64,000 nt of DNA from Pseudanabaena sp. lw0831 (lineage in GTDB: Bacteria; Cyanobacteriota; Cyanobacteriia; Pseudanabaenales; Pseudanabaenaceae), in assembly GCF_016584665.1 (NCBI RefSeq), contig NZ_BBJB01000057.1:1-64000 (forward strand), written 5' to 3'. Position numbers and translations under genes: made by a program. Each line of letters opens with the position of its first letter. Within the stretch, counting starts at the first letter, position 1. The notes beneath the pieces were generated by a model that made no database searches, was not told the DNA's origin, and was given only the letters and a program-made list of their open reading frames with translations. Shown here piece by piece: positions 50,542-54,085 of this stretch.

Positions 50542-50874
50542 TTAGTACATGGTCAACAGCCCCAAAGATTCTGTGTTGGTTAAATCCTGAATGTCAAGAT
50601 AATGTTTTCTCAAAATATTCTCAATTTCGTTGGTTGAGCAGTTGCCACGGCGAATCCAAATTATTTTTGGCGGAAATCCCAACAAGATTAGCAACTCATT
50701 GTAGTCGCCATCTTTTGTAACAATCGTAAAATCATTTGTCTTCGCATATTGCCAGACTTGTCGATCTTCCACTCGATCTAATCCCAAATGATAAACATGA
50801 TTGGAATTAGGAAATAATTCTGCTAAGCGATAAACCAATTTTGGAGAAAGATTGTGATCGAAAAGTAGCTTCAT
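50542..50874 (-). CDS. DUF5615 PIN-like toxin
   Basis: The 110-residue protein begins MKLLFDHNLSPKLVYRLAEL, typical of the DUF5615 PIN-like family, with TNDFTIVTKDGDYNELLILL and IIWIRRGNC as other landmarks. Its partner is the DUF433 gene upstream; the two overlap by 4 bp (ATGA). Predicted ribonuclease toxin of a type II system. Confidence 0.85.
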   Translation of the reverse strand: MKLLFDHNLSPKLVYRLAELFPNSNHVYHLGLDRVEDRQVWQYAKTNDFTIVTKDGDYNELLILLGFPPKIIWIRRGNCSTNEIENILRKHYLDIQDLTNTESLGLLTMY

Positions 50875-51125
50875 GCTTGAATCAGGAGAGTTTGTTGTTC
50901 TCGGTCGGCGGCATAGCTTAAACAGGCAAAGATATCTTCTTGAGTAAGGTATGGGAAGTCTTCAAGGACTTCTTGGTAGGTCATGCCAGAGGCAAGATAG
51001 GACAGAACGTCATAAACGGTGATTCGCATTCCTCTGATGCAAGGTTTTCCACTACGTTTTCCTGATTCAATGGTGATGCGATCGCGATAGTTCATATTTT
51101 TTAGCTCGTTCTTTTGATTGCTCAT
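50871..51125 (-). CDS. DUF433 antitoxin
   Basis: The 84-residue protein (74 if ATG 51095 is used) shows RITIESGKRSGKPCIRGMRI, then TVYDVLSYLASGMTYQEVLE and DFPYLTQEDIFACLSYAADR, the DUF433 helix-turn-helix antitoxin. It lies divergent to the NACHT gene with 76 bp between the two starts, so it may influence that promoter. Confidence 0.85.
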   Translation of the reverse strand: MSNQKNELKNMNYRDRITIESGKRSGKPCIRGMRITVYDVLSYLASGMTYQEVLEDFPYLTQEDIFACLSYAADREQQTLLIQA

Positions 51126-51201: not shown

Positions 51202-53571
51202 ATGACTCAAGAGCCAGAGCCAAAAGATACTGATAAGCCTACAAGCTCAATTCCAGAGAAACAGATTTTTTTTGGAATTGACGTTACTGATGCTCCCAAA
51301 ATTTTAAGCTGGTCATCATTGGGTGGTACTGGCGGGTTATGCATCAATTTCCTGATTCAGGGAGATTGGACGAAGGCGGCGATCTTTTTTCTTTTGTTTG
51401 TCATCACGGCAAGTTGGGGATTGATTTGGGCTTTTGGCAAAAGCTTTTTGGATACGCTTAAAGATGGCTTAGCAGGAACGGGCAAAACTCGCGCTGAACG
51501 TTTATTAGTAAGCATGGAGCAGCAGGAAAAAATCTCAGCAGAAAAGTCTATCCAAAATGCGGCTAAACAAGCTGAGATAAAAAGACTTACTGATTTTGAA
51601 TCAAGATATCTGGAAGAGCAAAAAGATACTTGTCATCGTGATGAGGCGGATGGGGTTAGGGAAGAAGATCATCTCGATAACTATCCTGTATTGCAAGAAA
51701 TATTTGTACCTCTGCGACTGATCGATAGTCCTAGAGAACTTGGGTTTAACCGATACGAAGAATTGGAAGGTGGTCAGATATCGGACATTTGGCAATTGTT
51801 GAGAAATAGCCAAGATAAGGAAAAACTTAAAAGGATCTCGATTCGGGCAAGGGGCGGCTATGGTAAAACCACACTTTTGAAATATCTTGCCTATACCTAC
51901 AGTAATCGTGCCTCTGGAGACTACAAAGCACCAAAGTTTATTCCCTTTTTGCTGTACTTATCCCGTTGTGTCAAATTTATAAATCAAGACGATTCGCTCC
52001 AATTACCGCAACTGTTAACCGATCATGCCCATAAATTATTAGAGAATCAAGTCTTTACTGCTCCTGATGATTGGGCAAAAAATTTGCTTTTAAATGGGCA
52101 AGCATTGGTGATGTTGGATGGTTTTGATGAAATACCAAGTTCTGAGGAGCGGGTCAAAGTTAGTGCTTGGCTCAATCGTGAAATGCAAAAATATAGAAAA
52201 TCGGTTTTCATCCTGACTTCGCGCCCAACTGCTTACAGATTAGATTATCCAAACAAGAAGCCATTCATGAATTATTGGATAAATGACTTTAATGATAAGC
52301 AGCGTCAAGAATTTCTGGAAAAATGGTATATCTACCAAGAAGGAAAAGCCGCTAAGGGGCTGGATCGAGGTATTGAGAAAAAGGCAAAAACGAGGGCTAA
52401 GTCTCTACTCGATCAAATTGATATGCGTCCAGAACTCAAGGCGCTCTCTGGTAATGCCCTGATGCTAAATATGATGGTGCGATATCATCGCGATAAAAAA
52501 GGAAAGGATCTGCCACAGCGTAAGTTTGAGCTATATCGTGGCATTTTGGAATTGCAGTTAGACCGCAGACCGACTGAGAAAGGGATTACATTGTCACTCA
52601 ATTCTGCGGCGGAACGTCAACAGGTGTTGCAGTTGGTGGCGCTAGCGATGATGCAACAGGTGACGAGTAGTACTAAAAAGGATGATGAAGGTTTTAAACA
52701 AATCTCTCACGAGCATTTAATCAAATCAATTGAACAAGCATTGACAAACAAGGGTTGGACAATTAAAGCCGATGAGTTTTTAAAGCAGATGGTGGATGTG
52801 AGCGAACTTTTAGTCAAGCGCGATGAAAATTATGAGTTTTCTCATCTTAGCTTTCAATCTTTTCTTGCTGCTTGGGAACTTTATGATTTAAAAGCAGAAG
52901 GTGAGAAGTTAATCTATGCCAAGTCTAGTTTAGATAAGTGGAAAGAGATCGATGCTTGGAAAGATACATTTGTTTTTTATGCCAATTTGGTCGATCCCAA
53001 TCAACTAATTCAAAAGCTAGTTGAACTTGATCAAGAGGACTTAGCGGATTTTATATATCGCCAAATCAACAGGGCTGATGTTGCCGAGCCGATTAGGAAG
53101 TTAGTCACGAATAATCTCTATCAGCAATTAGAGGAATATCTGGAAAATCAGCAATGGTATGAGGCGGATCAGGAAACTTGGAAGCTGATGCTTAAGGTAA
53201 CGAATCGGGAGGAAGAGGGATGGTTAGAGTTAGAAAATATTAAAAATTTCCCTTACGAAGATTTATTAACGCTAGATCGCCTGTGGGTGGAATATAGCAA
53301 GAAACATGGATTTGAGTTTGGCTTTAGTGTCCAGAAGCAGATTTATGTCGAGTGTGGTGGTATTCTAGACTTTAGTGATCCTAGTTCTAAAACTTGGAAT
53401 GAATTTTGCGATCGCACAGCATGGAAAAGCGAGGGTAAATGGGTGGACTATCCCGACCAATTTTTTCGAGTAAATTTTATGAATGTAAACGGGCACCTCC
53501 CGAGAGAGGGGGGATCCATCAGGGCTAGACAGATGGGTATCTTTTCTCGCATCAAGACTTGTGAAGTGTAA
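51202..53571 (+). CDS. Membrane-anchored NACHT NTPase with C-terminal GUN4 domain
   Basis: The start is ATG 51202 (MTQEPEPKDTDKPTSSIPEK); the product has 789 residues. Two hydrophobic segments near residues 40-85 (GGLCINFLIQGDWTKAAIFF, then LLFVITASWGLIWAF) anchor it. A linker leads to a NACHT domain: Walker A IRARGGYGKTTLLKYL near residue 217, Walker B ALVMLDGFDEIPSS and VFILTSRPTAYR. A helical region (SALSGNALMLNMMVRYHRDK part) follows. Residues about 660-789 are a GUN4 domain: LEEYLENQQWYEADQETWKL, KNFPYEDLLTLDRLWVEYSK, FGFSVQKQIYVECGG and NGHLPREGGSIRARQMGIFS. GUN4 binds Mg-porphyrins and bilins; NACHT proteins are oligomerising switches in defence and cell death. Confidence 0.88.
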   Translation: MTQEPEPKDTDKPTSSIPEKQIFFGIDVTDAPKILSWSSLGGTGGLCINFLIQGDWTKAAIFFLLFVITASWGLIWAFGKSFLDTLKDGLAGTGKTRAERLLVSMEQQEKISAEKSIQNAAKQAEIKRLTDFESRYLEEQKDTCHRDEADGVREEDHLDNYPVLQEIFVPLRLIDSPRELGFNRYEELEGGQISDIWQLLRNSQDKEKLKRISIRARGGYGKTTLLKYLAYTYSNRASGDYKAPKFIPFLLYLSRCVKFINQDDSLQLPQLLTDHAHKLLENQVFTAPDDWAKNLLLNGQALVMLDGFDEIPSSEERVKVSAWLNREMQKYRKSVFILTSRPTAYRLDYPNKKPFMNYWINDFNDKQRQEFLEKWYIYQEGKAAKGLDRGIEKKAKTRAKSLLDQIDMRPELKALSGNALMLNMMVRYHRDKKGKDLPQRKFELYRGILELQLDRRPTEKGITLSLNSAAERQQVLQLVALAMMQQVTSSTKKDDEGFKQISHEHLIKSIEQALTNKGWTIKADEFLKQMVDVSELLVKRDENYEFSHLSFQSFLAAWELYDLKAEGEKLIYAKSSLDKWKEIDAWKDTFVFYANLVDPNQLIQKLVELDQEDLADFIYRQINRADVAEPIRKLVTNNLYQQLEEYLENQQWYEADQETWKLMLKVTNREEEGWLELENIKNFPYEDLLTLDRLWVEYSKKHGFEFGFSVQKQIYVECGGILDFSDPSSKTWNEFCDRTAWKSEGKWVDYPDQFFRVNFMNVNGHLPREGGSIRARQMGIFSRIKTCEV

Positions 53572-53598
53572 ACCATAAAGCTTTCACACTTCTATATC

Positions 53599-53729
53599 AA
53601 GGAAAAAGTAGAAAGGAAAAAGGAAAAAATAAGATGCAGATAGATTTGTTTTTTTGCAATGTTATTCGTTAATATCAAAAGAAATTTTTACTTTTTACTT
53701 TTTACTTTTTACTTTTCCCCTTTTCCTTG
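53599..53729. repeat. A/G- and T/C-rich inverted repeat, left flank of S23 gene
   Basis: It runs from AAGGAAAAAGTAGAAAGGAA to a matching T/C-rich arm (TTTTACTTTTTACTTTTCCC, then CTTTTCCTTG) with ATAAGATG and AAAAGAAATTTTTAC inside. The copy at 54079-54188 on the other side of the S23 gene has the same order of motifs in the same orientation. Confidence 0.75.
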
Positions 53730-53731
53730 AA

Positions 53732-54085
53732 ATGCAACCCATCCCCGATCGCACCTTCCAATTCGCTATCCGTATAGTCAAACTTTACCAACATCTCGAA
53801 GAATCAAGTGGAGTCGCACGAACGATTGGCAAACAACTACTGCGTTCTGGAACATCTATCGGCGCAAACGTCCAAGAAGGACAAGCAGGACAAAGCAAAG
53901 CCGACTTTATTAGCAAAAATTATATTGCACTCAAAGAAGCAAGGGAAACACTCTACTGGCTAAAACTTCTCGCCGCCACAGAAATCATTCCCGAAATTCG
54001 CCTCAGTCCCATCTCCCAAGAAGCCGAAGAAATTACCCGAATCTTAGGAGCAATTATTGTCAAGGCAAAAGGAACAATCAAGTAA
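53732..54085 (+). CDS. Four-helix bundle protein (S23 / rRNA intervening-sequence type)
   Basis: The start is ATG 53732. The 117-residue protein has the family motif LLRSGTSIGANVQEGQAGQS, then KADFISKNYIALKEARETLY and a final helix EAEEITRILGAIIVKAKGT. Related proteins were first found encoded in intervening sequences of 23S rRNA; most are free-standing and form pentamers of helical bundles, with unknown function. The gene fills the space between two copies of one repeat, which recalls a mobile cassette. Confidence 0.88.
   Translation: MQPIPDRTFQFAIRIVKLYQHLEESSGVARTIGKQLLRSGTSIGANVQEGQAGQSKADFISKNYIALKEARETLYWLKLLAATEIIPEIRLSPISQEAEEITRILGAIIVKAKGTIK

What the first reader, a model, noticed from the sequence alone, without database searches (positions are those of the whole stretch)
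51202..53571. NACHT NTPase fused to a GUN4 tetrapyrrole-binding domain
The protein combines N-terminal membrane helices, a NACHT switch with intact Walker motifs and a C-terminal GUN4 domain with the typical FPYEDLLTLDRLW, GFSVQKQIY and GHLP motifs. In NACHT/NLR-like proteins the C-terminus is normally the sensor. GUN4 binds Mg-protoporphyrin and bilins and signals chlorophyll-pathway status. The arrangement predicts a membrane-bound, porphyrin- or bilin-gated NTPase, which would tie a defence or death switch to photosynthetic pigment state.
Basis: partly seen in the sequence, partly recalled or inferred. Interest (0 to 1): 0.78.

Follow-up and report, generated by a model that had tools for sequence, protein, structure and literature searches.

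The report
Hypervariable immune-receptor loop beside a transposase
In cyanobacteria, immune-like switch proteins carry a former pigment-binding domain whose tip differs, as a random-looking stretch, in almost every copy examined, often next to a DNA-cutting enzyme, which looks like a bacterial way of making ever-new recognition receptors.

Summary
The reported architecture is real: window 51202-53571 encodes a NACHT-GUN4 protein with a hydrophobic N-terminal span; both domains score above Pfam cut-offs. Porphyrin/bilin gating is not supported: the loop that carries the bilin motif LxNxLR in true GUN4 is replaced by a hypervariable segment.

Right after the GHLP codons of many cyanobacterial fused GUN4 domains, 13-141 nt of unrelated, G-rich, C-poor sequence sits between conserved DNA on both sides. 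The conserved downstream element (about 119 nt) is entered in all three frames. In-frame stops occur in 1 of 96 segments, against about 53 expected. Four paralogues on one Cylindrospermopsis plasmid have 85-98% identical upstream and 98-100% identical downstream flanks but unrelated segments.

The element ends a GUN4 gene in 102 of 104 testable cases, fused to NACHT, TIR-NACHT, TIR, caspase or kinase. Of 43 near-intact copies (at least 59% identity) of one RAYT/HUH transposase clade, 37 lie convergent to a GUN4 gene; 47 of 101 elements have such a gene or a remnant downstream.

Best reading: GUN4 has become a scaffold for a hypervariable recognition loop on NLR-like and death effectors, diversified by a length-changing mechanism unlike known retroelements, with RAYT as prime suspect. 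Function and enzyme role are inferred.

The parts
51202..53571 (+). NACHT-GUN4 protein gene (ATG start; ORF open from TTG 51118)
51349..51441 (+). Hydrophobic segment, aa 50-80: likely membrane anchor, possible effector end
   Evidence: hydropathy above 1.6 in windows starting aa 50 and 57-62
51850..52329 (+). NACHT domain, aa 217-376
   Evidence: Pfam PF05729 E 2.7e-12
53113..53508 (+). GUN4 domain, aa 638-769, scaffold of the variable loop
   Evidence: Pfam PF05419 E 4.2e-32
53491..53502 (+). GHLP codons (GGGCACCTCCCG), left border of the variable segment
53503..53537 (+). Hypervariable segment of the window copy, 35 nt; no counterpart found elsewhere in the own genome
53538..53654 (+). Conserved 3' element: last codons, stop and noncoding DNA (in the window the likeness to relatives ends at about 53595)
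   Evidence: profile R1 match E 1.1e-7; alignment
53563..53592 (+). Candidate hairpin GAAGTGT...ACACTTC around the stop codon
   Evidence: suggestive only; not found by RNAalifold in the relatives

Best explanation
The C-terminal GUN4 domain is a scaffold whose tetrapyrrole-binding loop has been turned into a hypervariable recognition loop. It is shared, as a swappable C-terminal sensor, by NACHT, TIR-NACHT, TIR, caspase, kinase and trypsin proteins of cyanobacterial conflict/death systems. Diversity arises at the DNA level at one fixed place: a segment between the GHLP codons and a conserved 3' element is replaced by new, G-rich, C-poor sequence of any length, so the downstream DNA is entered in any frame; selection keeps the open ones. 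A convergent RAYT-type HUH nuclease, encoded next to the element in part of the loci, probably nicks there to start the replacement. In the window protein, recognition of an invader product by the loop would switch NACHT to its ATP-bound, assembled state and let the membrane segment act. Shown: domains, hypervariability, borders, three-frame use, open-frame bias, near-exclusive GUN4 association, RAYT linkage. Inferred: RAYT as the engine, non-templated synthesis, antigen sensing, membrane effector.
For: Segments: 96 measured from 106 distinct elements; 13-141 nt (median 54); frames 35/32/29 (p 0.75); G 42%, C 9% against 27% and 18% in the 300 nt upstream; C lower in 85 of 95; in-frame stops in 1 of 96 against 47 and 54 of 96 in the other frames, shuffles expect 43 stop-free. 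Among sites picked by a DNA tag in loci fetched for GUN4 or NACHT matches: stops in 0 of 32, 12.2 stop-free expected. 277 pairs with alike upstream DNA: segment identity equals shuffled (mean z 0.02, none above 4), 6 of 277 of equal length. One plasmid, four paralogues: upstream 170-195 of 200 and downstream 108-110 of 110 identical, segments of 38-87 nt unrelated, no donor on that plasmid (chromosome not searched). 102 of 104 elements end a GUN4 ORF; 19 of 19 tag sites in 26 genus genomes do, reversed-pattern control 0 (matched by eye to GUN4 places). RAYT: of 43 copies with at least 200 aa matched at 59% identity or more, 31 are convergent at -17 to 231 nt from a listed element and 6 more face a GUN4 gene; HuH and Tyr motifs in 38 of 38 distinct open copies in fetched loci. 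Effectors.
Against: No strain or read data show change within a clone; variation is between species and paralogues. Only 47 of 101 elements with 1000 nt or more held downstream have a RAYT match there, 25 of them with at least 200 aa; the own genome has none. 17 further RAYT copies (45-50% identity, at least 200 aa) lie in genomes with a single GUN4, so the wider family has other roles. G021 and G008 NACHT-GUN4 copies share one segment (..MSGK[ED]GRRGDGDFFARI), 3 of 4560 pairs share a 14-mer, and the five best local segment matches (39-49) exceed the shuffled maximum of 38, so some stretches are inherited, copied or repetitive. Weak codon periodicity remains (Cramer V 0.048, p 4e-4; last 60 nt upstream 0.101). 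Internal 7-mer repeats exceed shuffles (157 against 102 and 116), so slippage may contribute. No phage or antigen link was tested. Both structure models failed (pLDDT 35 and 34), so the loop's place on the fold rests on sequence alignment. The hairpin is only suggestive (9 of 32).
Confidence: 0.7

Rival explanations
1. Tetrapyrrole sensor (first reader; Kaur et al. for GUN4 in conflict systems): porphyrin or bilin binding to GUN4 gates the NACHT switch and ties it to photosynthetic state.
For: GUN4 fold is clear. Above-cut-off GUN4 was found in 141 of 291 phylum genomes, all of the own class (recalled to be the photosynthetic one), with one sub-threshold hit outside it. N219G mutant GUN4 still binds porphyrin. 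Idea in print.
Against: LxNxLR is lost in 96 of 96 segments and the loop has no conserved sequence or length, which does not fit one conserved ligand; cyanobacterial GUN4 paralogues are already proposed to have lost bilin binding.
Confidence: 0.08
2. A diversity-generating retroelement acting in trans rewrites the segment from a template repeat.
For: Same niche: DGRs diversify C-terminal lectin-like domains of NACHT, kinase and caspase proteins. Most genus genomes have some reverse transcriptase (21 of 26).
Against: DGRs mutate adenines against a template and keep length (recalled); here lengths run 13-141 nt in any frame. No RVT_1 hit in G002 (one contig), G010 and G011, which carry the element; G016 likewise, but its element match is weak and it is 76% complete. 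The own genome's only RVT_1 protein looks retron-like by motif (recalled). No template copy in the own genome. DGR-type RTs were not searched for as such.
Confidence: 0.07
3. Selfish-element scar: the RAYT is an ordinary transposon that landed at GUN4 gene ends, its end supplies the stop codon, and the segment is neutral junk.
For: Y1_Tnp family; decayed copies keep the last codons; 54 of 101 elements have no RAYT match downstream; multi-copy relatives elsewhere.
Against: One gene class (102 of 104), the same codon, almost no in-frame stops, intact catalytic motifs in 38 of 38 open copies, near-identical flanks with unrelated segments on one plasmid.
Confidence: 0.1
4. Gene conversion from silent donor cassettes (as in pilin or VlsE switching).
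For: Two genomes share one segment in otherwise different genes; a few segment pairs share stretches.
Against: No donor in the own genome or on the C. curvispora plasmid, only 11-12-mers; 3 of 4560 segment pairs share a 14-mer.
Confidence: 0.05

Closest known systems
DGR-diversified sensors on NACHT, kinase and caspase proteins (PMC10907252 passages; PMC7517822 passages and section 6)
   Same: Hypervariable C-terminal sensor domain fused to immune or death effectors; 3' position in the gene
   Different: GUN4 instead of C-type lectin fold; length and frame vary; C-poor insert; no template copy found, RT absent from some carriers; convergent HUH nuclease in part of the loci. In the passages seen, GUN4-like is listed among less-common domains of DGR variable proteins
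NLR-like bacterial NACHT and Avs proteins
   Same: Effector-NACHT-sensor order; TIR-NACHT-GUN4 forms
   Different: Sensor is GUN4 with a hypervariable loop
Conflict systems of Kaur et al. 2020 and 2021 (PMC7159879, PMC8195603; passages)
   Same: GUN4 with caspase, TIR, kinase, trypsin; iSTAND-MoxR loci
   Different: They propose tetrapyrrole sensing; hypervariability of GUN4, the element and the RAYT are not mentioned in the passages seen
RAYT/TnpA_REP (PMC6006769, passages)
   Same: Y1_Tnp domain, HuH and Y..NP motifs, gene beside its putative DNA element
   Different: Few element copies per genome, tied to one receptor class
V(D)J recombination with junctional N-addition (recalled)
   Same: Transposase-family nuclease at fixed sites beside variable-length, frame-changing receptor sequence
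   Different: HUH not DDE family; single site, no gene segments joined; somatic variation not shown

Membership tests
GUN4-like domain (PF05419) | Profile score over curated cut-off | tested here: met
   111.7 bits, cut-off 29.2
Canonical tetrapyrrole-binding GUN4 | LxNxLR bilin motif after GHLP | tested here: not met
   0 of 96 fused segments; 25 of 25 canonical loci
Canonical tetrapyrrole-binding GUN4 | Porphyrin-contact Phe (At F191) | tested here: inconclusive
   Alignment column shifted by one
NACHT NTPase | Profile score over cut-off | tested here: met
   47.3 bits, cut-off 26.7
Bacterial NACHT antiphage system | Protection against phage | not testable with these tools
   No experiment; PADLOC gave only PD-T4-6 (GUN4 part) and mad8 at E 1.4e-4
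DGR variable protein | Template and variable repeat of equal length | tested here: not met
   Lengths 13-141, 6 of 277 close pairs equal; no second copy in own genome
DGR variable protein | Reverse transcriptase in the genome | tested here: not met
   No RVT_1 in G002, G010, G011, which carry the element; present in 21 of 26 genus genomes, RT type not sorted
RAYT/TnpA_REP | Y1_Tnp domain with HuH and Tyr motifs | tested here: met
   E 3.8e-18; 38 of 38
RAYT/TnpA_REP | Many dispersed REP copies | tested here: not met
   1-6 element matches in each of the 111 genomes with a match
PD-T4-6 defence kinase (PADLOC) | Kinase part of the model matched | tested here: not met
   Match is to model 284-448, the part that GUN4 genes match

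The most novel reading that the evidence does not exclude
A bacterial counterpart of junctional antigen-receptor diversity: a domesticated HUH transposase cuts at a conserved element and the gap is refilled with largely non-templated, C-poor sequence, so that cyanobacteria keep making new recognition loops on a GUN4 scaffold for NLR-like, TIR, caspase and kinase death effectors.
Probability: 0.4. Interest if true: 0.98.

Novelty: categorically new. Interest (0 to 1): 0.93.

Why it matters
Targeted receptor diversification in bacteria is known from retroelements that change bases at fixed positions. Here the length, frame and sequence of a receptor loop all change, at one site, on a fold borrowed from chlorophyll synthesis, in many cases next to a transposase-family nuclease. 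It would be a separate invention of what vertebrates do at receptor junctions, in NLR-like proteins. It also questions a published inference, because the GUN4 of these conflict proteins need not sense pigments. The question is directly testable by sequencing one amplicon from a clonal culture.

Tried and rejected
Bilin/porphyrin gating: tested by motif; rejected for bilin, open for porphyrin. PADLOC PD-T4-6 hit: only the part of a kinase model that GUN4 genes match. DGR: see rivals. Rfam: best scores 15-23 bits, all far below gathering scores. RNAalifold found no hairpin; a position scan gave 9 of 32 perfect 8-bp stems, so the hairpin is only suggestive. P-nucleotide-like copies at the left border: 1 of 96 at 3 nt, fewer than the swap control of 3.1. 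Structure prediction with two sequences failed, so no fold search was run. Phages: no match to the protein. Tolypothrix plasmids of three sub-lines carry GUN4 followed by a separate WD40 gene; no element was sought there, so they tell nothing on rate. Nostoc CENA543 plasmid GUN4 fetched, not analysed.

Limits of the counts: the best-ranked element matches were fetched (30 loci; 60 regions; the listing was cut off), so weak ones are under-sampled. Of 106 distinct elements, 2 at contig edges, 2 without a GUN4 ORF and 6 without an anchor were dropped before the count of 96. In one search an ORF had to be open to 30 nt before the element; at most those 2 misses were lost to that. My first count of canonical GUN4 with the motif (23 of 23) was circular, because the motif had been used to label them; one search repeats it on loci chosen by score alone (25 of 25). 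In one search I compared RAYT places with element places copied from the cut-off listing, so 31 of 43 is a lower bound; of the other 12, six face a GUN4 gene, four lie within about 365 nt of a contig end and two do not. The 43 leave out 17 copies of 45-50% identity from genomes with one GUN4.

Full report
What was checked. The window protein (51202-53571, +) is a NACHT-GUN4 fusion with one clear hydrophobic N-terminal span: Pfam GUN4 E 4.2e-32 and NACHT E 2.7e-12, both above the curated cut-offs, with the GUN4 part matching solved GUN4 proteins. The architecture recurs in the own genus and in four further families and at 79% identity in a Coleofasciculaceae MAG. NCBIfam gave no match; PADLOC's PD-T4-6 hit covers only the part of a kinase model that GUN4 genes match.

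Why the pigment reading fails. Above-cut-off GUN4 occurs in 141 of 291 sampled phylum genomes, all of the own class. In true GUN4 the bilin loop carries LxNxLR directly after GHLP (PMC10156173: sections 7 and 11 and part 1 of section 6 read; the position after GHLP is from my alignment); porphyrin contacts lie in helix alpha2 and a flexible loop between alpha6 and alpha7 (PMC8967248, passages). In the genus, 25 of 25 canonical GUN4 loci, chosen by score alone, read LSNQLR there, while 0 of 96 hypervariable segments have the motif. The fused domains are alike up to GHLP and then unrelated to each other.

The hypervariable segment. At the DNA level the genes are alike up to the GHLP codons, differ completely for 13-141 nt, and are alike again from a short pyrimidine-rich border on. 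The downstream DNA is conserved regardless of frame, so the same bases end proteins as ..FSHRDL..FSRIETCEV or ..LASRLVKCKA. In loci fetched for GUN4 or NACHT matches, 33 sites were found by a 20-nt tag; 32 had the left border; 0 of 32 segments hold an in-frame stop, against 18 and 20 of 32 in the other frames, and 12.2 +- 2.5 stop-free expected from shuffles. A 119-nt profile made from 28 elements matched 111 of 291 class genomes, 58 of 130 genera. The 30 loci returned each end a GUN4 ORF. With 60 more regions there were 106 distinct elements: 2 at contig edges, and 102 of the other 104 end an open frame with GUN4. Ninety-six segments could be measured: median 54 nt, frames 35/32/29, base make-up A 17, C 9, G 42, T 32% against 29, 18, 27, 26% in the 300 nt upstream; 1 of 96 has an in-frame stop, 47 and 54 of 96 have stops in the other frames. 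Codon periodicity is about half that of the last 60 nt upstream, but not absent. Among 277 pairs with similar upstream DNA, segments are no more alike than shuffled ones; yet over all pairs the five best local matches exceed the shuffled maximum, and internal repeats exceed shuffles, so copying or slippage may add to the process.

A natural experiment. On the plasmid NZ_CP060823.1 of Cylindrospermopsis curvispora GIHE-G1 four GUN4 genes (RS17585, RS17625, RS18600, RS18605) share 170-195 of 200 upstream and 108-110 of 110 downstream bases pairwise, while their segments of 70, 38, 87 and 44 nt are unrelated and have no donor on the plasmid (the chromosome was not searched). Two further GUN4 genes there have other or diverged ends. 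RS18605, in which Pfam sees only GUN4, stands in an iSTAND-MoxR-GUN4 locus, the kind of ternary conflict system described by Kaur et al.; the other three are trypsin-GUN4 proteins, one of them behind a run of helicase and DNA-methylase genes. RS17625 and RS18605 are each followed by a convergent gene annotated as transposase, Y1_Tnp in the case tested. The plasmid also bears a type I CRISPR locus.

The neighbour enzyme. In 10 of 22 NACHT-GUN4 loci members or pieces of one gene family lie downstream in convergent orientation, some about 1 kb away: an IS200-like Y1 transposase of RAYT type (Pfam E 3.8e-18). In the genus all four full-length copies face a hypervariable GUN4 gene. In the class, 43 copies match over at least 200 aa at 59% identity or more; 31 are convergent at -17 to 231 nt from a listed element; of the other 12, six face a GUN4 gene, four lie near contig ends and two do not. 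Seen from the element, 47 of 101 with 1000 nt or more held downstream have a convergent RAYT match, 25 over at least 200 aa, and no match lies on the same strand. HuH and Tyr motifs are intact in 38 of 38 distinct open copies in fetched loci (motif patterns from PMC6006769, passages). The own genome has no copy, so the window locus may now be fixed, or served by something else.

What carries it. Of 102 element-bearing proteins, sorted by similarity to seeds, 54 have NACHT (11 with an FGE match, 2 with TIR), 22 caspase, 10 TIR without NACHT, 8 kinase, 8 unassigned; 35 of the 102 are cut at their 5' end. Pfam confirmed NACHT, TIR-NACHT, TIR, caspase, kinase and trypsin fusions in samples. On a GUN4 tree of 96 rows and 129 columns the six labels need 25 changes (least possible 5; shuffled mean 43), so the module moves between effectors though not freely. 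Among the closest GUN4 domains outside NACHT proteins are those of caspase and kinase proteins of the same genus, at 45-63% identity over the aligned part.

Mechanism. Shown: the borders, the loop's place in sequence, the diversity, the open-frame bias, the near-exclusive GUN4 association and the RAYT linkage. Inferred: that RAYT nicks the element, that refilling is largely non-templated, that the loop binds invader molecules, and that NACHT assembly then frees the membrane segment to act. Retroelement templating fits poorly, because length varies and three well-covered genus genomes with the element show no RVT_1 match. Against: no within-clone data, no RAYT match behind 54 of 101 elements, and one segment shared by two genomes.

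Literature. Searched: GUN4 with NACHT, GUN4 with tetrapyrrole structure terms, GUN4 domain with cyanobacteria, NACHT antiphage sensor terms, PD-T4-6, retroelement with cyanobacteria and GUN4, RAYT with hypervariable and NACHT terms, GUN4 with hypervariable (two papers), HUH and junctional diversity terms. Passages only were seen of PMC7159879, PMC8195603, PMC2853523, PMC7475262, PMC3501461, PMC10811720, PMC8967248, PMC10907252, PMC11514479, PMC6006769 and PMC10910872; passages and section 6 of PMC7517822. In these (above all) GUN4 is treated as a tetrapyrrole sensor or as one of several domains of conflict or DGR variable proteins; none mentions a hypervariable GUN4 loop, this element or its RAYT. 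The library holds open-licence papers; most subscription papers and bioRxiv preprints were not searched.

Noticed in passing
window 50542-51125 (-): DUF433/DUF5615 toxin-antitoxin-like pair divergent from the NACHT gene; the DUF433 family occurs in 10 of 22 NACHT-GUN4 loci.
   Followed up: partly
window 53654-54085 (+): 23S rRNA-intervening-sequence protein downstream; relatives lie downstream in L043 and L053 too.
   Followed up: no
L056 (own genome contig C66): A second NACHT-GUN4 gene of the own genome is broken by stops but its segment and element are readable.
   Followed up: partly
L134/L003 (own genome contig C55): GUN4 fragment with the element but no GHLP, overlapping the end of a caspase-like ORF that seems to hold a DnaJ-like cysteine-rich region (by eye).
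   Followed up: no
L110, L113, L119: Caspase and kinase proteins with two GUN4 domains in tandem.
   Followed up: no
L047 and L049/L228: NACHT-GUN4 genes of two species share one segment but differ upstream: inheritance, exchange or conversion.
   Followed up: no
G215, G169, G288, G249, G263, G298 (small genomes of family f2, probably picocyanobacteria): Relatives of the RAYT (45-53% identity, several copies in most of them) in genomes with only one GUN4; what they serve is unknown.
   Followed up: no
L071, L073, L074: Related NACHT proteins with HEAT or leucine-rich-repeat C-termini instead of GUN4.
   Followed up: no
L173: The own genome's only RVT_1 protein looks retron-like by motif (recalled), not DGR-like.
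   Followed up: partly
PADLOC model PDLC04062: The PD-T4-6 model scores stand-alone GUN4 proteins, so cyanobacterial PD-T4-6 calls may be spurious.
   Followed up: no
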